Part shown: piece by piece, positions 7,005 to 43,116 of the stretch | How positions within the stretch are numbered: position 1 is the stretch's first letter | How the letters are laid out: every line of letters starts with the position of its first letter | DNA from: a virus | IMG/VR virus record: IMGVR_UViG_3300036852_000239 | Location: 1 to 64,000 of that record | Length of the DNA stretch: 64,000 nt | Direction: 5' to 3' (one strand) | Program-made: the position numbers and the translations under genes | The notes under the pieces: model-generated | Told to the model about the DNA's origin: nothing | What the model saw: only the letters and a program-made list of their open reading frames with translations | Database searches by the model: none

Positions 7005-7271
7005 CTACTCCTCTGATGTGGTGGGGGCTGGCTGGCATTGAGCGAGTTGGACGATCGCGGCGGCGAACAGCGAGGCCTGGCCCACCGGCTCTTGCTGGCC
7101 GATCTCGTAAAGCTGGGCGGCAAGGACGTCGACCAACTGGACCCGGTTCCAGCCCTCGGCCAGGTCCGCGCGGGCGCGGTCGACCATTGCGCCGAGCTCG
7201 CCGGAGATCTGATCGAACAGCGCCACTACCGCCGGTTCAGCAGGAGTAGACGCGTCGAAAGGAGTGATCAT
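7005..7271 (-). CDS. Small helical early protein
   Basis: 88 aa, ATG in a 4-nt overlap with the Nudix gene. Helical, rich in alanine and glutamine (QEPVGQASLFAAAIVQLAQ). Its stop is directly followed by the start of the truncated gene. No domain recognised. Confidence 0.6.
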   Translation of the reverse strand: MITPFDASTPAEPAVVALFDQISGELGAMVDRARADLAEGWNRVQLVDVLAAQLYEIGQQEPVGQASLFAAAIVQLAQCQPAPTTSEE

Positions 7272-8749
7272 CTCGTCGCCTCCGGTCGGGGCAGTTTGGT
7301 GATGGCTGTTCGGTCGGGTTCCACCACGTCCACGCCGTCCAGGGCGGACAGGTCGAACCAGACGGCCAGATCGTGCTCATCTGAGAGCGTCACCTCGCGT
7401 GCGGCGGCGGACTCGCAACGGAAGAACGTGCCGGTGATCTCGTGTGGGACCCCCCGGATGGTGGGGGACCAGGAGCCGGTGTGCACCTGCTCGCCCACCT
7501 GGACGGTCAGGCCGGTCTCCTCGACGACCTCCCGCACCAGGCCCTGCTCCAGTGTTTCGCCTGGGTTGATCCGGCCTCCCGGGAGCTGCCAGCGGCCCGC
7601 CTGGGTGCCGTCAGGGGTGGAGGAGGACTCCCGTAGCAGCAGGATCTGATCGTTCTCGTTGACGATCAGGGCCTTGGCCGCTGCGGCGTGGACGATCTCC
7701 GGGTGAGCCGGAGCGTCCTCGGCCGGCGCCTCCGGTTGCGGGCGACGGCGAGCGATCTCCTCGCGCATCTCGACGCGCAGTTCTTCGATGCGGCCCTCGG
7801 CGAGCATCTGAACACGGCGCGGTGCCTCACCGGGCTCGTAGAGGCCATGGTTCCCGCAGCCGGGGCAGTAGAACTCCCGGCCGCCCGAATAGGACTGGTA
7901 GGTCGTCCGCTCATTGCAGGCTGGGCAGCGGTGAGGCTGGGGCGGTTCTTCGCCGCCATCCACCGACAGAACGGCGAGAGACTCGATGGGAGCGGAGTTG
8001 CACTCGGCACAGATGTAGCTGGAGCCCTCATGGCGAAGCGGCCCGCGTCTCCCGCATTCCTGACAGTGGTGGTAGTGGCCGTCTTCGAACCACATCTCCA
8101 TCATCTCCCGGACCTTGCCCAGGGCCGCGTCTACGATCCGGTCACAGTCCTTCGGCGAGATCCGGGCGGGCGTTCCGGCGGGAGCCTTCTTGTGCGGCCA
8201 CAGGGCACCCCAGCCCCACAAATGCCCAGACGTGGTGAGCATCTTCCACCGGCCATCGCCGAGCTTGCAGCCTCGTTGTGACGCGGCCTCGAGATCGGTG
8301 AGACGTTTCAACTCGGCGCGGGCTTCGGCGAGGTCTCGGGTGACCCGCTCGAGCTCGGCCGCCAGCTTCTTGATCTCAAGGTCTCGCCACCGGACCTCGC
8401 CCCAGGCTTTCATCGTTTCGTCGTTGCCACGCTCGATGTGCAATTGCGCGATGTCCAGCTCTGCCATGAGCCAGTCGAGCAGCGCGCCGAGATCTGGCAG
8501 CACGCCCTCCCGTGCCGGATCGTCCTGCTGCCACAAGGCTGTAGCGGCTTCCATCCGGGTGTGCTGGAGATCAAACAAGGCGGTCAGCTCAGCCAGTTCG
8601 TCGGCCTGTCGCTCGACCTCGGCTAGCAGTGCCCGCGTGTGGCAGAAGAAGATCGACGCCTCATCGGTGCGCGCAAAGTCGTCACGGTCGACAAGGTCCT
8701 TCCGGATCTCTGCGATCAGCTCGGGTGTCATAGCGGAAGACTCGGTCAC
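7268..8749 (-). CDS. Coiled-coil, zinc-ribbon and Nudix hydrolase fusion
   Basis: 493 aa. Residues 35-155 form a coiled coil. Two zinc ribbons follow (C229-x2-C ... C247-x2-C; C275-x2-C ... C295-x2-C). The C-terminal third is a Nudix hydrolase whose box runs from GGRINPGETL (391-400) to REVVEETG (406-413), with all catalytic glutamates present. Nudix enzymes hydrolyse nucleoside diphosphates linked to another group. The long N-terminal extension is not usual for the family and may direct the enzyme to a nucleic acid or partner. Joined by ATGA overlaps to both neighbours. Confidence 0.85.
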   Translation of the reverse strand: MTESSAMTPELIAEIRKDLVDRDDFARTDEASIFFCHTRALLAEVERQADELAELTALFDLQHTRMEAATALWQQDDPAREGVLPDLGALLDWLMAELDIAQLHIERGNDETMKAWGEVRWRDLEIKKLAAELERVTRDLAEARAELKRLTDLEAASQRGCKLGDGRWKMLTTSGHLWGWGALWPHKKAPAGTPARISPKDCDRIVDAALGKVREMMEMWFEDGHYHHCQECGRRGPLRHEGSSYICAECNSAPIESLAVLSVDGGEEPPQPHRCPACNERTTYQSYSGGREFYCPGCGNHGLYEPGEAPRRVQMLAEGRIEELRVEMREEIARRRPQPEAPAEDAPAHPEIVHAAAAKALIVNENDQILLLRESSSTPDGTQAGRWQLPGGRINPGETLEQGLVREVVEETGLTVQVGEQVHTGSWSPTIRGVPHEITGTFFRCESAAAREVTLSDEHDLAVWFDLSALDGVDVVEPDRTAITKLPRPEATR

Positions 8750-9260: not shown

Positions 9261-9564
9261 GGGCCACCGCCGTGGGCGTGATGAACTCGGTGACGGGTGC
9301 CTCGGCCCAGGCGATCGAGTCCTGGCCGTATTCGGCGGCGTACTTGGCCAGGGTCAGCTTCAGCCCGGTCTTCTGTGGGTCCCATTCGAAGCACCAGCAC
9401 GCGTTCTGCCACGGCTCGGCCGAAGGGGAGACCCAGGCTCCGTGGATTGTGCCCGCCCAGCGACGAACGAGGTTGTCGATGTCCTGGCGGTACATGGACC
9501 ATTCGCGCTGGGTGAGCTTGTCGTCGCTATTCCCGATGGAAAGGTAGATCGTTTTAGTGCTCAT
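9115..9564 (-). CDS. Hypothetical protein lacking its own stop
   Basis: Starts at ATG 9564, overlapping the end of the Nudix gene upstream by 11 nt. About the first 95 residues look like real protein (MSTKTIYLSIGNSDDKLTQR, later WCFEWDPQKTGLKLTLAKY). Beyond VTEFI the frame has poor codon use but no stop and runs into the gene at 8746-9114. Either a stop was lost or the product is an A-C fusion. The right end given here is only where the next gene begins. Confidence 0.45.
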
Positions 9565-10438
9565 TGGCCGCCTCCACAGGAGAGGAAGACTCGGCGGCCA
9601 TGCGGTTGAGACCGTCGGCGGCAGCCTGAGCCCGCTTCCACGCCTCCAGTGCCTCAGCCTCGTCGTCGCAGTCGTCCAGATCGATCTCAAGGAAGATGTC
9701 TGAGCTGGTGCAGGTGCCGGGCAGGTGCTCGTCGCCGGCGCGAGCCGGCAATGCGCTGCCGCATCGGACGCTGATTACGCCATCGCCGTCGTCTGCGAAG
9801 ATCTCGCGGATCGCCTCCTCCTGGTCGTCGTGGATCCACCCGTAGCGGTCGGCCACGACCGCACGCCACGGGCCGGTGGAAGACTCGGCGGCGGGTGATC
9901 CATTGGCGAGCCGCAGCCACATCACGGCCACCTGCGCGTCCTGAACCCGTGCGAGGTCATCCAAGTCGAGCCACACGGCTGCGCTTTCCGCCTCCACTCG
10001 ACTGCCATCACCGATCGCCTCACCAGGTTCGCGGCCAGTCAGATCCACGGAGAACAGCGAGTAGACCGTGTCGGCGGACTTGCTGGCGTAGCAGGTTCCG
10101 AGCGGGATCAGTTCGTCACGGGTGATCCCGTAGCCTGTCTCCTCGAGCATTTCGCGCACGGCATCGTCCTCGATATCGCCCCCTTCGTAGCCGCCGGTGA
10201 TCGCGGACAGGACTTGGTCGAAGCCCCAGCACGGCGTCATCTCGGACTTGACCAAGAACTCGCGGCCGTGAGCCGTGTCGCGGTAGGGCAGGATCGCGAC
10301 GATGCGTCCCTGACAGCGGGTCTCGTGCGAGTACACGTAACCGTTGACGCCTACGGATGGGTTGCGGACCTCGCGAAGGGAAACCCACCCGTTGTGGTGC
10401 AGCTCGATGTCGCAGATCTCGTTGGTCGACTCAGTCAC
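9554..10438 (-). CDS. Second Nudix hydrolase
   Basis: 294 aa. GTG 10438 was chosen because it follows the upstream gene with a short overlap. The Nudix box is GGYEGGDIEDDAVREMLEET at residues 82-101, slightly diverged from GX5EX7REUXEEXGU in its first half. A long acidic C-terminal extension (RADR-like, then EIDLDDCDDEAEALEAWK) is not recognised. With the 493-aa protein this gives the phage two Nudix enzymes in one operon, which suggests work on nucleotide pools or modified nucleotides. Confidence 0.75.
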   Translation of the reverse strand: MTESTNEICDIELHHNGWVSLREVRNPSVGVNGYVYSHETRCQGRIVAILPYRDTAHGREFLVKSEMTPCWGFDQVLSAITGGYEGGDIEDDAVREMLEETGYGITRDELIPLGTCYASKSADTVYSLFSVDLTGREPGEAIGDGSRVEAESAAVWLDLDDLARVQDAQVAVMWLRLANGSPAAESSTGPWRAVVADRYGWIHDDQEEAIREIFADDGDGVISVRCGSALPARAGDEHLPGTCTSSDIFLEIDLDDCDDEAEALEAWKRAQAAADGLNRMAAESSSPVEAANEH

Positions 10439-10670
10439 GGGTCGCCTCCACAGGCTCAAGAGAGGAAGACTCGGCGGCTCGGATTGCGACGTCGAGACGG
10501 GATGCTCCCCATCGGAGCCAGTCCTCATGAGACATTTCGGCGCCATCGGTTCGGGCTTTGTGTGGGATCCGGTTGGCGGCGTAAGTCAATGCCCGCAGGA
10601 ACGCGCGACCCGCATCAGGGGTCATGGTGAGCGCGACGGTGACGTCGTTCTCGGCGGCGGTCTTACTCAC
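10431..10670 (-). CDS. Small hypothetical protein
   Basis: 79 aa with ATG overlapping the gene upstream by 8 nt. One beta strand (DVTVALTMTPDAGRAFLRAL) and an amphipathic helix. Function unknown. Confidence 0.55.
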   Translation of the reverse strand: MSKTAAENDVTVALTMTPDAGRAFLRALTYAANRIPHKARTDGAEMSHEDWLRWGASRLDVAIRAAESSSLEPVEATRD

Positions 10671-32546: not shown

Positions 32547-32576
32547 AGCTGGCGCGTCCATCCATGGGAGCCCGTG

Positions 32577-33779
32577 ATGTGGGTTGAAAAACACCGAAAG
32601 GTGTTCCGCATCCGCGACGAGTTCATCGATGCGGATGGCAAGCGGGTCAAGTTCGACCTGGCCACCGGCTTTGCCACGAGGACGGCCGCCAACGACGCCA
32701 TGGCGATCCTGAAAGCCGAACAGCTCCAGGGCACCGGACTCGTGCCGCGCGGCGGGGAGCGGACGCTTGCCCAGTACTGCGGCCAGTGGTGGGAGGACAG
32801 CGAGGGCATCTACACCAGAGTCCGCTCCCGCGAGACCATCAAGAGCAGGATGGACCGCTACATCGTGCGGCTACTCGGCAGCCACACCCTCGCCGAGCTC
32901 GAGGAAAGCCCACGGCTGGTGCAGCGATGGGTGAACGCCCTGCTGCTGGGCCGCACGAAGCCGCTTCGGGGCAACCCCAGACCGCTTGCCCCGAAGACCG
33001 TCCGCGACGCCCACGGCCTCCTCCACCAGATCCTGGCGGCAGCGGTCAAGGAGAAGCTGATCCGGTCCAACCCGTGCGCGGACACGAAGCTGCCCGAGCG
33101 GGTCGACACCGAGATGCGGTTCCTCACCCCGGCTGAGGCCGACCGGCTCGTGAACGCGTTCCCGCCGCACTGGCGCCCACTGATCCTGTTCCTGCTCGCT
33201 ACGGGGTGCCGGTGGTCAGAGGCGATCGGGTTGCGGCTGAAGAACCTGGACGTCCTCGCCTGCCGCGCGCGGATCCTGGTCAAGACGGTCATGGATGACT
33301 CCGGGAATTGGCATGACGAGCCTCCCAAGTCCCGCCGAGGGCGGCGGACGGTGTCGTTCCCCAAGCGGGTCGCCCAGTCACTGATCGCACTGGCGATGAT
33401 CGACGACGACCGGGAGCGGCGAATCTTCCTCGGCCCCCGAGGGGGCATGATCGCGGCGAAGGATTTCTATGCGATCTGGCGCAAGGCGCTCGCCGAAGCC
33501 GGACTAGAGGGCCTGCGTATCCACGACCTGCGCCATACACATGTCGCCTGGTTGATAGCGGCGAAAGTGCCGCTGTCGGCCATCAGCCGGCGGATCGGGC
33601 ACAAGAGCATCGCGGTGACCGACGACATTTACGGCCACCTCCTGGAGGAGATCGAAGACTATCTCACCAGCTCGCTCGACGCGGTCATGACCGTGATCGA
33701 GATCCGGGGGGAGTGGGGGGAAATCCGGGGGGAATCGGTGTCCGATGAGGACCGGCGAGAACCGGTGAAGACCGGCTAG
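32577..33779 (+). CDS. int: Tyrosine integrase
   Basis: 400 aa from ATG 32577 (GTG 32574 is possible). N-terminal arm-binding and core-binding domains are followed by the catalytic domain: R212 in ATGCRWSEAIGLR, H316-x2-R319 in HDLRHTH, H342 in IGHKS and the nucleophile Y352 in DIYGH. A Gly/Glu-rich tail follows. It recombines attP with a tRNA-Ser attB. attP lies 45 bp after the stop. Confidence 0.95.
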   Translation: MWVEKHRKVFRIRDEFIDADGKRVKFDLATGFATRTAANDAMAILKAEQLQGTGLVPRGGERTLAQYCGQWWEDSEGIYTRVRSRETIKSRMDRYIVRLLGSHTLAELEESPRLVQRWVNALLLGRTKPLRGNPRPLAPKTVRDAHGLLHQILAAAVKEKLIRSNPCADTKLPERVDTEMRFLTPAEADRLVNAFPPHWRPLILFLLATGCRWSEAIGLRLKNLDVLACRARILVKTVMDDSGNWHDEPPKSRRGRRTVSFPKRVAQSLIALAMIDDDRERRIFLGPRGGMIAAKDFYAIWRKALAEAGLEGLRIHDLRHTHVAWLIAAKVPLSAISRRIGHKSIAVTDDIYGHLLEEIEDYLTSSLDAVMTVIEIRGEWGEIRGESVSDEDRREPVKTG

Positions 33780-35476: not shown

Positions 35477-36820
35477 CTACGCGATGTCGCCTGCCAGTGT
35501 CAGCAACCTTCTCACCGGAGCAATCTGCCGGTTGGCCAGCGGCATCAGCATCGAACGCATGTCGCGGACCACCTGACGGCCACGCTCGGACTGGATGGGT
35601 GCCAGCCGATGACACGCCGCCTCCCAGTTCGAGAACGCCAAGTCGACCCGCCCGGCCTTGAACGCCACCTCCGCCAGCCAGCCCTGCGACAGGCCCACAA
35701 TCAGCGCATGGTCGCCGGCGAACCCGCGCGCCCCCACCGACAGTGCGAAATGCTCCTGCGCCCCGTCCAAATCCCCCAGGTCGGCCAAAGTCTTGGCGAC
35801 GTGGGAGTGGTACTGGCCGGCGTTGTTGCGCAGCTTCACCCAGCCCGGACGGGTGTCGCCCAGTTTGGCGCGCTCGTTGAGCGTCTCCGCCCAGTTGATC
35901 GCCTCCAGGGCGAGGCGTTTCTCGCCGCGCATGGCGTGCGCCCGGGCCACGGTCAAGGTGAACACCGCTTCGGTGTGCGGGTCGGCCTGGCCGCGGATCG
36001 ACTCCACCGCGGAGGTGGCCAGATCCAGGCAGTTGACGTAGTGCCCGAGGTCGAAGGCCTGGTGGGCGAGGATGCGCTTCACGTACGCGGCTTGGCGCAG
36101 GTCGTTGGAGTGGGCGGCCAGCTGGTAGGCGTACAGGTAATACCGCTGCGCCAGCCCTTCCTGCATCAAATCGTGGCATTTCCATGCGGCGAGGTAGGCC
36201 AACTGCATCGCCTGGTTGAACATGGCCCCGCGTACCGCCTCGGTGGCCGGCGCGCGGCAGTAGGCGGTCACGTCGGTGGTGAGGTATTCGACGAGGGCAG
36301 AGCGGCCGAACCCGCCGCCGAGCCGCTCGTCGGCCATGTCGAATGCGCGGGTGACCTCGGCGACCGCTTCCACCTCCGCCTGGCCGATCGGCCTACCTGA
36401 AGCCGCTGCTGCGGCCCGTTCATCTTGTTCGGCCACGTATTCGGCTGGCAGCATCAGCGCCGACAGCGAGTAGGCGGCGCTGGCCAGGAACCCTCGTCTG
36501 TCCACATCGGCCCTTCCCAGTCGTCGAAGTGCGGCGATGGGATCATCCGGCAGCCGGTCAAGAGTGTCGCCGTCGGCGCCGCCGTGACCTAACTCGATCG
36601 GGTGAACGGCACGCCCGAGCCTGCGCGATAACGCTTCGGCGATGTAGCCGACCGCTGCGGGCTGCGGCTTGTGTGCCCCAGACAGCCACTGCGACACGCT
36701 GGCCTTGGTGTATCGCAGCAGTTGGCCGTTTTCGGCGGCGATCCGGTTGACCGCCCTGGCCAGGGCGTCGTGGGTGTACCCGGATTGGCTGATCAAGGCG
36801 CGCAGGCTGGCGTTTTCCAT
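35477..36820 (-). CDS. HTH-TPR transcriptional regulator of the actinomycete type
   Basis: 447 aa from ATG 36820 with GGAG 8 nt upstream; an ATG at 36880 would overlap the operator. N-terminal XRE-like HTH (YTKASVSQWLSGAHKPQP), a short RRGFLASAAYSLSAL segment, then many TPR-like helices. This architecture belongs to streptomycete regulators that respond to signals and also occurs in integrative elements. The inverted repeat at its promoter suggests autoregulation. Confidence 0.8.
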   Translation of the reverse strand: MENASLRALISQSGYTHDALARAVNRIAAENGQLLRYTKASVSQWLSGAHKPQPAAVGYIAEALSRRLGRAVHPIELGHGGADGDTLDRLPDDPIAALRRLGRADVDRRGFLASAAYSLSALMLPAEYVAEQDERAAAAASGRPIGQAEVEAVAEVTRAFDMADERLGGGFGRSALVEYLTTDVTAYCRAPATEAVRGAMFNQAMQLAYLAAWKCHDLMQEGLAQRYYLYAYQLAAHSNDLRQAAYVKRILAHQAFDLGHYVNCLDLATSAVESIRGQADPHTEAVFTLTVARAHAMRGEKRLALEAINWAETLNERAKLGDTRPGWVKLRNNAGQYHSHVAKTLADLGDLDGAQEHFALSVGARGFAGDHALIVGLSQGWLAEVAFKAGRVDLAFSNWEAACHRLAPIQSERGRQVVRDMRSMLMPLANRQIAPVRRLLTLAGDIA

Positions 36821-36855
36821 GTGCGACTCCGCATCCAGAGGTGTGTGCTGGTTAC

Positions 36856-36882
36856 GTGTGGTCTTAACCCACTTAACCACAC
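36856..36882. promoter_or_regulatory. Operator-like inverted repeat
   Basis: GTGTGG, 15 nt, CCACAC, with CTTAAC and ACTTAAC inside. It lies 36 bp upstream of the start of the HTH-TPR gene, where binding would cover the promoter. Confidence 0.5.
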
Positions 36883-40023: not shown

Positions 40024-40133
40024 TTGGACGCCCGGGACGAATCCAGCACGGTAACGACGCGCTGGCGCGCCCCGGGCGCCCGTACAGAGTAGAGGATTCC
40101 AACTCGATCCCTGAGCCCCGCAGACGACAAAGC

Positions 40134-40172
40134 AGCGCCCCGCCGTGCTCTCGACGAGCTGGCGGGGCGCTT
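40134..40172 (+). terminator. Terminator between the convergent operons
   Basis: AGCGCCCCGCC, 16-nt loop, GGCGGGGCGCT, then TTGCG. The 11-bp GC stem lies between the stop at 40023 and the stop of the Ro gene at 40201 and can serve both strands. Confidence 0.65.
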
Positions 40173-40200
40173 GCGTTCTGCCGGATGGTTCGGAAGGGCT

Positions 40201-41808
40201 TCAGGATACTGGCTGGAGCCACGGCCAGGCGGCGTTGCGGCCTGATTCAACCAGCGGTATGACCTTAAAGCCTGCGTCGGTCAGGCCACCGATGGTGAGC
40301 CGGTTCGGCCCACCAGGGGCGTGTCCTCGTTCGTAGCCAGCTAGGTTGAAGGTTGTCATCGGCGTGGTCTTCGGTGCCGAGTCGCCTACCTCTTGCCAGT
40401 CCGATGCCGCCTGCTCGTCGGTGAGGATGACGATCCGGTCGTGGCCTGCGAAGTGCTTACGCACAGCCGCCGCCGTGGCCGTGCCGCCGCCCAGGAACCA
40501 GCCGCCGCCCTTCCACCGCTCCAGCGACTTGAGCAGCGACTCGCCGGCGGTGAGCGGGAACACCTTGGTGTGTGCGCCGTGCGCCTGGCCCCAGTACTGG
40601 GCGGTCGAGGAGAACGACACCACATCCGCATTGGCGCACCGCTGGGCCAAGGCGACACCGAACAGCACCGCCGCGTCCCAGCGCATCAGCGTGCCGTCCT
40701 TGGAGAACGACCCGTTCATGCTCGACGACGTGTCCACCAGGATCAGCGTCCGACCCGACAGGACTGGGATGTTGGCCAGGCTGTGGCCGAGCGCCTTCTC
40801 CAGCGGGTACCCCCAGCGCAGGCTTGGCGCCGCCCGGTAGGCCGATAGGAACCGCATCGGCAACTGGCGGCTCTTGGCCACCTGCTGAGGGTCAGCAAGA
40901 CGCGCCGCGACTTTGTCGGCCACATCGTCCGGCACACCGGCCTCGTCGAAGTTGCGCAGGTTACGCAGCAGTGCCATGTAGCCCATCGACGGGATCAGCG
41001 CCGACCACAGCTTCGCCTTGTCCAACTTCGACCCCGCCAGCGACAGCACGTCCTCCCACGTCATACCCGCACCCTTGAGCGTGTTCGGATCGAGAAGATC
41101 GCCGTACTCGCCGCGCGCTGCATTCTCCCGCAGCTTCGCGTTCAGGCGCACCATCGCCAGCGACGACGGGATGCCGTCTCGGTTGTGGCGCCGGTCGAGC
41201 GCCAGCTTGAATAGGGTGGCTTGCTTGATGTCGGTCGCGTCAGGGTGGGTCAGGTCGAGCACATCAGCGAACCGGAATCCCTTGGACGCGGTGTCGTACT
41301 TGAGCAGGTTGTACTCCGTGTAGAGCTTCCGTGCCGCGTCGGCAATGCCGCGCTTGACCGGCATCGGCAGCTTGCGGCCGTACCGCGACATCCAGTAGGC
41401 CAGCGCCTCGCCAGGCTCATCGGCGCGCTGCAACACGCTGGCGATCATCTGGCGGGAGCCGGGGACGTTCGCGGCGAGCATCGCCTTCGTGGCCTCCAGC
41501 GCGCCGACGAGGGACGCGGAGCGCATATTGCCCTCGCCGCGAAGCCAGCGCAGGAAACCGGCCGTCCACTGCGGATCGGCCGCCGCCACCTGGTGCACCA
41601 GCTGCTCGTAGCGGGCGTCACGGTCGTTGGCCGACTCATAGAAGGCTCGTTCCCCGACCATATTGCTGACCGCCAAGAGGAAAAGCTCACTCTTGGCGTC
41701 GCGGGCATAACCTGGGCCACCCTCGTAGGTGTGGCCGCTTGCGCGCTGCTCGGTGACGATCGGCGAAGTCACCGAGGGCTTCGCGGCACGGACGTTGAAC
41801 TTGCTCAA
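40201..41808 (-). CDS. rsr: Ro60/Rsr homologue (TROVE plus vWA domains)
   Basis: 535 aa. TTG 41808 was chosen for GGAAGGGG 6 nt upstream; ATG 41841 lacks a site. Residues about 30-340 form the TROVE ring of HEAT-like repeats (for example FYESANDRDARYEQLVHQVA; RWLRGEGNMRSASLVGALEA). The C-terminal part is a von Willebrand A domain whose MIDAS motif is DTSSSM (359-364). Ro proteins bind Y RNAs on the outside of the ring and the 3' ends of misfolded RNAs inside it, and in Deinococcus work with PNPase. Three Y-RNA-like genes lie immediately upstream on the same strand. Size is near that of bacterial Rsr. Confidence 0.95.
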   Translation of the reverse strand: MSKFNVRAAKPSVTSPIVTEQRASGHTYEGGPGYARDAKSELFLLAVSNMVGERAFYESANDRDARYEQLVHQVAAADPQWTAGFLRWLRGEGNMRSASLVGALEATKAMLAANVPGSRQMIASVLQRADEPGEALAYWMSRYGRKLPMPVKRGIADAARKLYTEYNLLKYDTASKGFRFADVLDLTHPDATDIKQATLFKLALDRRHNRDGIPSSLAMVRLNAKLRENAARGEYGDLLDPNTLKGAGMTWEDVLSLAGSKLDKAKLWSALIPSMGYMALLRNLRNFDEAGVPDDVADKVAARLADPQQVAKSRQLPMRFLSAYRAAPSLRWGYPLEKALGHSLANIPVLSGRTLILVDTSSSMNGSFSKDGTLMRWDAAVLFGVALAQRCANADVVSFSSTAQYWGQAHGAHTKVFPLTAGESLLKSLERWKGGGWFLGGGTATAAAVRKHFAGHDRIVILTDEQAASDWQEVGDSAPKTTPMTTFNLAGYERGHAPGGPNRLTIGGLTDAGFKVIPLVESGRNAAWPWLQPVS

Positions 41809-41850
41809 AACGGCCCCTTCCGGGATTGGAGGGAGCCGCATTCAGAGAGT

Positions 41851-41992
41851 GGGTGCCCGAGATCTAGTCGGCCCGGCGGACATTAGGCGCTCTGCCATCT
41901 GAGCTACAGGCCCCAAAGGCGCCTGACGGGATTCGAACCCGCGACAACCCCATTACAAGTGGAAGAACTCCGAACCTTCGCAACGGGCACCC
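41851..41992 (-). ncRNA. yrlA: Y-RNA-like gene 1, YrlA type with permuted tRNA-like module
   Basis: 142 nt. Ends GGGUGCCCG and CGGGCACCC pair over 9 bp. GUUGCGAAGG follows the 5' stem and AGAUCUC precedes the 3' stem. Inside, in permuted order, are a T arm (stem ACGGG/CCCGC with GTTCGAAT, 41926-41942), an acceptor-like stem CAGGCGCC-UUU-GGGGCCUG (41907-41925, one mismatch), and a D arm GCUC-AGAUGGCA-GAGC (41889-41904). This is the arrangement of YrlA RNAs, which mimic tRNA. It ends 42 nt before the Ro start codon. Confidence 0.85.
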
Positions 41993-42005
41993 ATCTGAAG
42001 TTGTG

Positions 42006-42104
42006 CTCCCTGAGATCAAGGCGGCTGGAGTTCGGGGCTCTCTAGTTCCCCAAGGTGCCCTCACAGGCTGGAAGAGAAGTAGCTCCGGCCATCGCAACAG
42101 GGAG
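42006..42104 (-). ncRNA. Y-RNA-like gene 2
   Basis: 99 nt. CUCCCUG and CAGGGAG pair over 7 bp. GUUGCGAUGG and UGAUCUC stand at the same places as in the neighbours. Inner stem GGCCGGAG with CUCCAGCC (one mismatch) and an apical GGGG ... CCCC hairpin. No tRNA-like module. Confidence 0.75.
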
Positions 42105-42121
42105 TTGCTATTCAAAAGTCA

Positions 42122-42202
42122 TGCCTTCCGAGATCAGAGCGCTCTGCGGTTGTGGTTTCAAATGCGAATTGAAGTAACCGTGGAGCTTCGCAACGGAAGG
42201 CA
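42122..42202 (-). ncRNA. Y-RNA-like gene 3
   Basis: 81 nt. UGCCUUCCG and CGGAAGGCA pair over 9 bp. GUUGCGAAGC and UGAUCUC are conserved. Inner stems GCUC/GAGC and CGGUU/AACCG, and an apical UUCAA/UUUGAA. First RNA after the promoter. Confidence 0.75.
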
Positions 42203-42208
42203 GTGCCC

Positions 42209-42239
42209 ACGGTAGCACGCGGGTCCGACAAGACCGCAA
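42209..42239 (-). promoter_or_regulatory. Promoter candidate of the Y-RNA cassette
   Basis: TACCGT (42214-42209) is a -10 whose expected start, 7 nt on, is 42202, the first base of the Y3 stem. TTGCGG 19 bp upstream is a weak -35. The coincidence with the RNA end is the main support. Confidence 0.5.
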
Positions 42240-42242
42240 ACC

Positions 42243-42274
42243 AAAATGCGCCCCACGCCGAAGCGTAGGGCGCA
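42243..42274 (-). terminator. Late-operon terminator upstream of the Y-RNA cassette
   Basis: TGCGCCCTACGC, loop TTCG, GCGTGGGGCGCA, then TTTT: a 12-bp stem with a UUCG tetraloop. It ends the lysis transcript and isolates the Ro/Y-RNA unit. Confidence 0.85.
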
Positions 42275-42335
42275 CAGACCGGTGAGATTGGATGATCGGC
42301 CAGGGTTGTCGTACCCGCGGGTGAGACTGGATGGC

Positions 42336-42616: not shown

Positions 42617-42862
42617 CTAGCCAGGGGCGTCGTCGCTGTCTGCCGCGGCCTTGCGCCGGTATCTCACGTAGAAATGGCCCGGAAGCCACAGCAGCAGCAC
42701 GCCAACGGCTGCGAACGTGACCCAAGCCGGCACATGGTCCACCAACAGTTGAGTCCAGGGTTCGGTGTCGGTACTGCCGTCGAAGCTGGCGACCAGCTCC
42801 CATCCGACCGCGAGGCCGGTGATGAGCAGGAAGACCCAGCGCAAGGCGAGCTTTCGGCTCAC
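42617..42862 (-). CDS. Two-helix membrane protein after holin
   Basis: 81 aa from GTG 42862 (GTGA overlap with holin). Helices LALRWVFLLITGLAVGWELV and WVTFAAVGVLLLWLPGHFYV, then a basic tail. Possibly a second holin or an antiholin. Confidence 0.6.
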   Translation of the reverse strand: MSRKLALRWVFLLITGLAVGWELVASFDGSTDTEPWTQLLVDHVPAWVTFAAVGVLLLWLPGHFYVRYRRKAAADSDDAPG

Positions 42863-43116
42863 CGGCTGGTCTCGCGGACAACCACGGTCGGCGCGGTCTC
42901 CACCAGACTGGGCGAGTTGTCCTTGCCGAACGGCGCCGACACGAGCGAGGTCAACGCGGACAGCAGCGCCGCGCCGGCGGCGATGCCGAGGGCCAGCTTC
43001 CAGTCCGCGTTCAACGCGTTGAAGCCGCCGTCGAGGACCCATAAGCCGAGCAGAGCCTGAGCCGCCGACTTGGCCGCCCGCTCCGCCGTCTCCCTCCAGA
43101 AGGTCTTACGAAACAT
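42859..43116 (-). CDS. r1t-like holin
   Basis: 85 aa. FRKTFWRETAERAAKSAAQA is the conserved opening of the r1t holin family, with a membrane helix after it and a second (LALGIAAGAALLSALTSLVS). It forms the lesions that release the lysin. Confidence 0.8.
   Translation of the reverse strand: MFRKTFWRETAERAAKSAAQALLGLWVLDGGFNALNADWKLALGIAAGAALLSALTSLVSAPFGKDNSPSLVETAPTVVVRETSR

What the first reader, a model, noticed from the sequence alone, without database searches (positions are those of the whole stretch)
40201..42239. Phage-borne Ro60/Y-RNA cassette with three tandem Y-RNA-like genes
A TROVE-vWA protein is directly preceded on the same strand by three short elements. Each has a perfect terminal stem (9, 7 and 9 bp), the same 5' motif GUUGCGA after the stem, and the same 3' motif GAUCUC before it. 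The terminal stems differ in sequence between the three but pair within each, a strong sign of selected RNA structure. Three Y-RNA genes in one phage cassette is an unusual dosage and diversity. The phage may use Ro to handle host RNA, tRNA or nuclease complexes during infection.
Basis: partly seen in the sequence, partly recalled or inferred. Interest (0 to 1): 0.95.

Follow-up and report, generated by a model that had tools for sequence, protein, structure and literature searches.

The report
Phage Ro protein with tRNA-mimicking Y RNAs
A temperate phage of an actinobacterium carries a self-contained cassette of three small Y RNAs and the Ro protein that is expected to hold them; such cassettes are a known kind and three copies is common, but the third RNA (like dozens of relatives) contains a whole tRNA with its ends re-wired, including an anticodon loop that I did not find described in the papers I could read.

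Summary
Upstream of a Ro60-type (TROVE-vWA) gene lie three minus-strand RNAs of 81, 99 and 144 nt, each with a paired terminal stem, GUUGCGA and GAUCUC. A covariance model built only from other genomes ranks exactly these three first in the whole record (123, 30.3 and 29.6 bits; next 14.9). The Ro/Y-RNA reading is supported by fold and profile matches to Ro60 and Rsr. The 'unusual dosage' claim is wrong: a relaxed scan of 160 related loci found two to five Y RNAs in 123 and three or more in 54. Rfam's YrlA scores Y3 at 40.5 bits, below its cut-off of 69.

In relatives the anticodon stem closes across the permutation with strong covariation (74/80 double Watson-Crick; shuffles at most 39). The triplet varies, while the loop follows tRNA rules (U36-A37, G36-G37, A34 rare). 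The cassette has its own promoter-like site, flanking terminators and a Shine-Dalgarno-sequestering hairpin before Ro. Most likely it makes a Ro-Y ribonucleoprotein whose tRNA mimic recruits RNA or tRNA enzymes. Use as an anticodon-nuclease decoy is possible and untested.

The parts
42246..42275 (-). intrinsic terminator-like hairpin (13 bp, UUCG loop, then UUUU) that separates the cassette from the lysis genes
   Evidence: -26.7 kcal/mol, z -5.6
42209..42214 (-). TACCGT, actinobacterial-type -10 element ending 6 nt before the first base of Y1 (weak TTGCGG -35-like at 42239-42234)
   Evidence: sequence; a TANNNT lies 17-23 nt before the 5' motif in 50 of 126 first elements and 6 of 107 later ones. 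The sigma-70 scan found no site
42122..42202 (-). Y1, 81-nt Y RNA, 9-bp terminal stem
   Evidence: 30.3 bits; z -3.9
42157..42173 (-). 5-bp stem and 7-nt loop UUCAA-UUCGCAU-UUGAA in Y1, at the place of the anticodon arm
42006..42104 (-). Y2, 99-nt Y RNA, 7-bp terminal stem; no clear anticodon arm and no T arm
   Evidence: 29.6 bits
41850..41993 (-). Y3, 144-nt YrlA-like Y RNA, 10-bp terminal stem, holding a complete circularly permuted tRNA
   Evidence: (123 bits)
41948..41964 (-). Y3 anticodon arm UUCCA-CUUGUAA-UGGGG (tRNA positions 29-43; anticodon-like UGU)
41926..41942 (-). Y3 T arm GCGGG-UUCGAAU-CCCGU
41907..41925 (-). Y3 acceptor stem closed by a UUU loop (no CCA, no free 3' end)
41889..41904 (-). 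Y3 D arm GCUC-AGAUGGCA-GAGC
41886..41887 (-). Y3 CC (tRNA positions 27-28), pairing with GG 41949-41948 (positions 42-43) across the permutation
   Evidence: covariation in relatives
41810..41839 (-). leader hairpin that pairs the Ro Shine-Dalgarno sequence GGAAGGGG with CUCCCUCC
40201..41808 (-). Ro60/Rsr-type TROVE-vWA protein, TTG start
40132..40174 (-). terminator-like hairpin after the Ro gene
   Evidence: -35.6 kcal/mol, z -4.4

Best explanation
The locus is an autonomous phage cassette that makes a Ro-Y RNA ribonucleoprotein. One promoter is inferred to transcribe the three Y RNAs and Ro together. Each Y RNA is inferred to bind the Ro ring through its basal stem and its GNUGCG/GAUCUC internal loop, and to present its other end to a partner. 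Y3 presents a full mimic of a tRNA, rebuilt as a circular permutation opened between positions 28 and 29 of the anticodon stem: anticodon arm, T arm, closed acceptor stem and D arm, with pairs 27-43 and 28-42 closing the break. By analogy with YrlA, the tRNA face recruits an enzyme that recognises tRNA or structured RNA (PNPase as in RYPER, tRNA-modifying or tRNA-cutting enzymes) and couples it to Ro for RNA handling in the lysogen or during infection. A hairpin over the Ro Shine-Dalgarno sequence is inferred to keep Ro output below that of the Y RNAs. Shown by computation: protein family and fold, RNA structure, conservation, cassette anatomy. Inferred: transcription, binding, partner and role.
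For: Ro: Pfam TROVE 65 bits; profile hits to Ro60 1YVP and Rsr 2NVO; AlphaFold model (pLDDT 85) matching 1YVP at TM 0.69/0.71, 2NVO at 0.64/0.70 and Thermus phage phiLo Ro60 9L5Y at 0.62/0.72. RNAs: model R1; 29 of 38 pairs with two-sided changes, covariation 0.547 against 0.157 +/- 0.009 shuffled and at most 0.11 slid; pairs 27-28/42-43 both Watson-Crick in 74 of 80, no shuffle above 39, seven pair combinations. tRNA mimicry: 7-nt loops preferred over other sizes (79 long elements with at least 5 bp against 1-20), C/U32, U33, A37, A38 conserved with a variable triplet; U36-A37 62/64, G36-G37 10/13 (0 of 20,000 shuffles), A34 4/120; 51 of 79 loops identical to a real tRNA loop in the same loci, column-shuffled maximum 45. 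Literature: YrlA binds Rsr and PNPase and mimics tRNA (PMC8394870); the Salmonella Y RNA 6CU1 superposes on tRNA as a circular permutation (PMC11472068).
Against: No expression or binding data. Y3 is below Rfam's YrlA cut-off (40.5 against 69 bits). Single-sequence folding of Y2 and Y3 is not exceptional (z -0.7 and -0.5), and Y3's centroid structure omits the anticodon arm, so that arm rests on comparative evidence. Only about half of the long Y RNAs have the arm (95 of 181). The partner (PNPase or other) is inference from other bacteria.
Confidence: 0.75

Rival explanations
1. Decoy: the anticodon arms are bait for host anticodon nucleases (VapC-, MazF- or PrrC-type) or for enzymes that act on anticodon loops. 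Ro concentrates and protects the bait, and the phage carries several Y RNAs to present several loops.
For: Loops copy real tRNA loops and keep the 36-37 rule. In several actinophages Ro sits inside clusters of real tRNA genes. Mycobacteriophage tRNAs are argued to evade VapC through anticodon-loop mutations (PMC10264068). A competitive-inhibitor role for Salmonella YrlA was suggested (PMC7790460).
Against: The same RNAs occur in bacterial genome contigs, not only in phages. Triplets in one cluster always differ (19 of 19), but random draws would nearly always differ too (4.6% chance identical). No cleavage data. The Salmonella YrlA tRNA-like domain was not cut by the anticodon nuclease.
Confidence: 0.2
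2. Permuted tRNA gene: Y3 is processed (RNase P, RNase Z and ligation) into a functional tRNA-Thr(UGU).
For: Complete cloverleaf with a tRNA-Thr-type loop; ARAGORN calls a tRNA here.
Against: The acceptor is a closed hairpin without CCA and strands 28 and 29 are not continuous. The ARAGORN call is a different, linear fold that misses the D and acceptor arms found here, and it scores 23 bits, under the Rfam tRNA cut-off of 29. Many relatives lack the anticodon arm and still keep the Y RNA frame.
Confidence: 0.03
3. Plain YrlA: the tRNA-like domain only recruits PNPase, and the anticodon arm is a neutral leftover of tRNA capture.
For: T, D and acceptor arms are conserved even where the anticodon arm is absent.
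Against: Fixed position of the arm on the UACUUC motif, many compensatory changes at 30-40 and 31-39 (16 and 20 of 42 sequences) and the 36-37 rule across many genera suggest maintained selection.
Confidence: 0.25

Closest known systems
YrlA (Rfam RF02553), bacterial Y RNA with tRNA-like module (Salmonella 6CU1; Mycobacterium smegmatis)
   Same: Ro-binding basal stem, T arm, closed acceptor stem and D arm in circularly permuted order, next to a Ro gene; Rfam YrlA matches Y3 at E 2.7e-7
   Different: Below the gathering score; the Rfam consensus has a 4-bp helix and no room for a hairpin where this clade has an anticodon arm; none of 12 related loci gives a YrlA match at the cut-off
Ro60 / Rsr, including Thermus phage phiLo Ro60 (PDB 9L5Y) and actinophage 'Ro-like RNA binding proteins'
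   Same: TROVE ring and vWA fold with intact DxSxS, near the same kind of RNAs
   Different: 38-47% identity to the named actinophage proteins; 14-23% to solved structures
RYPER (Rsr-Y RNA-PNPase of Deinococcus)
   Same: Same protein and RNA classes
   Different: PNPase contact not testable here
rsr-yrlBA-rtcBA RNA repair operon (Salmonella)
   Same: Ro plus Y RNAs side by side in one locus
   Different: No RtcB in this record or in 16 related viral records; no conserved neighbour gene

Membership tests
Ro60/Rsr | TROVE domain and C-terminal vWA | tested here: met
   PF05731 65.2 bits over a cut-off of 23; PF13519 only 20.1 against 27, but the vWA fold is in the model
Ro60/Rsr | ring fold like 1YVP and 2NVO | tested here: met
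   TM 0.69/0.71 and 0.64/0.70
Ro60/Rsr | binds Y RNA | not testable with these tools
   needs pull-down
YrlA | tRNA-like module with T, acceptor and D arms in permuted order | tested here: met
YrlA | Rfam gathering score (69 bits) | tested here: not met
   40.5 bits; Y3 is therefore called YrlA-like, a separate clade, not a member of RF02553 as curated
YrlA | adjacent Ro gene | tested here: met
   Y3 ends 41 nt before the Ro start
this actinobacterial Y RNA clade (model R1) | match to a model built without the window | tested here: met
   Y3 E 1.8e-27, Y1 1.8e-5, Y2 2.7e-5
tRNA (functional) | Rfam tRNA cut-off, free acceptor end | tested here: not met
   23 bits against 29; closed acceptor hairpin
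RYPER | Y RNA tethers PNPase to Ro | not testable with these tools
   biochemistry needed
RNA repair operon | RtcB nearby | tested here: not met

The most novel reading that the evidence does not exclude
Actinobacterial and actinophage Y RNAs form a set of Ro-bound decoy tRNAs: permuted cloverleaves that carry exchangeable anticodon loops and mislead or recruit anticodon-loop enzymes (toxin or defence nucleases, t6A37/m1G37 modification enzymes) during phage-host conflict.
Probability: 0.2. Interest if true: 0.85.

Novelty: new variant of a known kind. Interest (0 to 1): 0.5.

Why it matters
Bacterial Y RNAs are described as mimicking the D, T and acceptor arms of tRNA (PMC8394870). A large actinobacterial and phage clade that also rebuilds the anticodon arm, with variable triplets and the natural 36-37 rule, makes it directly testable whether Y RNAs engage anticodon-loop enzymes, an open point about what Ro-Y particles do. 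It also explains a class of false tRNA annotations next to phage Ro genes, and the Rfam YrlA cut-off misses the clade.

Tried and rejected
Rfam at gathering scores found nothing in the window and no Y RNA in 12 related loci. The ARAGORN tRNA-Thr at 41991-41917 was rejected as a linear misreading of Y3. A partner gene was sought by clustering neighbours: only families shared within small groups, mainly Amycolatopsis; RtcB absent. Comparing triplets within a cluster was uninformative. A sigma-70 scan found no promoter; the -10 assignment rests on comparison. Key papers (Chen 2014, Wang 2018, Sim and Wolin 2018, Sim 2020) are not held, so prior description of an anticodon arm cannot be excluded.

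Full report
What is there. The window lies in a 67,171-base virus record. It codes for a capsid protein, head-tail and tail proteins, a tyrosine integrase at 32574-33779 and a holin at 42859-43116, so it is a temperate tailed phage, of an actinobacterium judging by its relatives. Between the holin and an HTH-domain gene (35477-36880), on the minus strand, lie a terminator-like hairpin (42275-42246), a TACCGT -10-like site, three Y RNAs, a leader hairpin, a Ro gene and a second terminator-like hairpin. This is the layout of an autonomous extra cassette.

The Ro protein. The 535-residue product (TTG start 41808, Shine-Dalgarno GGAAGGGG, MSKFN shared with relatives) matches Pfam TROVE well above the cut-off. 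A profile of relatives hits Ro60 1YVP and Deinococcus Rsr 2NVO at E about 1e-13 to 1e-12. The AlphaFold model (mean pLDDT 85) finds every Ro60-type structure first, among them the Ro60 of Thermus phage phiLo (9L5Y), and no other fold below E 0.04. A phage Ro60 is thus not new.

The three RNAs. Y1 (81 nt), Y2 (99 nt) and Y3 (144 nt) share GUUGCGA, then a UACUUC-type motif, then GAUCUC and a closing stem. In 160 related viral and genomic loci a conservative scan found 230 such elements upstream of Ro and none in 722 kb of control sequence. A relaxed scan found 335 against 4 in 578 kb, with two to five copies in 123 of 160 loci and three or more in 54. An element of the long class (over 122 nt, the class that holds the tRNA-like domain) is present in 132 of 143 positive loci. 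Three copies is therefore ordinary. Named lytic phages show the same: VanLee, Neville, GiJojo and BRock carry about four.

Structure and covariation. RNAalifold on 42 long relatives, chosen for an anticodon-like hairpin but without the window, gave terminal stem, second stem, anticodon arm, T arm, acceptor hairpin and D arm. In that prediction the two outer pairs of the anticodon stem, made with the UU of UACUUC, vary on one side only. Replacing them by pairs to the two nucleotides after R26 that follow the D stem gave two-sided changes (GC 23, AU 18), with 98.3% of cells paired over the whole structure and a covariation score of 0.547 against 0.157 shuffled and at most 0.11 slid. On 80 long elements not selected for these pairs, both were Watson-Crick in 74, in seven combinations; shuffles averaged 23 and never exceeded 39. 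The RNA is therefore a whole tRNA, circularly permuted, with the opening between 28 and 29. Shuffles do not remove relatedness among sequences, so these numbers are not probabilities. Y3 in the window obeys it: GG 41949-41948 with CC 41887-41886.

The anticodon loop. Among long elements, hairpins starting at UACUUC with at least 5 bp have a 7-nt loop in 79 cases against 1-20 for other sizes. The loop is C/U32 U33 N N N A/G37 A38 with a variable triplet. Among arms with U33, U36 is followed by A37 in 62 of 64 and G36 by G37 in 10 of 13 (no shuffle of 20,000 reached this), and A34 is rare, 4 of 120. In the 79 best arms, 51 loops equal a real tRNA loop found in the same loci, against a column-shuffled mean of 32 and maximum of 45. 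Window Y3 has CUUGUAA, found in 12 real tRNAs there; Y1 has UUCAA-UUCGCAU-UUGAA, not in that set; Y2 has no clear arm.

Independent recognition. Model R1 puts Y3, Y1 and Y2 first in the window at 123, 30.3 and 29.6 bits, next 14.9, and again in the whole record. In five whole actinobacterial genomes of 8-11 Mb the strongest hits lie at the Ro loci. A sample of 149 genomes of the phylum gave five positives at E 1e-8, one of them the reference genome; four of the five have Ro beside the hit. Rfam's YrlA matches Y3 only at 40.5 bits, below its cut-off of 69, and reaches no cut-off in 12 related loci.

Control of expression. A TANNNT hexamer lies 17-23 nt before the 5' motif in 50 of 126 first elements and in 6 of 107 later ones, so the cluster is most simply one transcript, cut into RNAs later (inferred). 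Between the last Y RNA and Ro, a hairpin pairs the Shine-Dalgarno sequence in 82 of 130 distinct leaders against 26 in shuffles (maximum 34); with at least 9 Watson-Crick pairs, 33 against 1.8. It would hold down Ro translation, or end transcription where a U run follows (inferred).

What it works like. YrlA RNAs bind Rsr by the basal stem and PNPase by the tRNA-like module (PMC8394870), and a Salmonella Y RNA superposes on tRNA as a circular permutation (PMC11472068). The window cassette has the same parts. It differs by the complete anticodon arm, for which the Rfam consensus has no room. What that arm meets is unknown; nuclease decoy and recruitment of tRNA enzymes are the two live readings. 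It is not a tRNA gene (closed acceptor, no CCA, below the tRNA cut-off) and not an RNA repair operon (no RtcB).

Limits. No expression or binding data are available. The primary papers on YrlA are not held, so the anticodon arm may already have been described. Y2 and Y3 do not fold better than shuffles on their own; their support is comparative.

Noticed in passing
L163 2707-2778, L162 2769-2843, L166 2748-2838 (phages VanLee, GiJojo, Frankenweenie): Annotated 'tRNA-Arg(tct)', 'tRNA-Arg(cct)' and 'tRNA-Pro(tgg)' just upstream of Ro lie in Y RNAs, so they look like misannotations. ARAGORN makes 55 such calls in 52 related loci.
   Followed up: yes
window 41810-41839 and leaders of relatives: Hairpin that buries the Ro Shine-Dalgarno sequence, often followed by a U run; possible attenuator or translational control of Ro.
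   Followed up: partly
spacers between Y RNAs, e.g. L002, L004, L016: A recurrent ACAACUUCA-like motif between elements, sometimes also between promoter and first element; role unknown.
   Followed up: no
Y RNA anticodon-like loops of relatives: U36 is more frequent (64 of 120) than in real tRNAs of the same loci (about a third), i.e. loops of the t6A37 class are favoured.
   Followed up: partly
L082 435-4167: Micromonospora locus with 27 tRNA genes in a row directly upstream of Y RNAs and Ro.
   Followed up: no
L162, L164, L167: In several lytic actinophages Ro and its Y RNAs sit inside the phage tRNA gene cluster; Atuin also has Y RNA matches downstream of Ro.
   Followed up: partly
window 7268-8749 and 9554-10546: Two NUDIX-domain proteins in the phage.
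   Followed up: no
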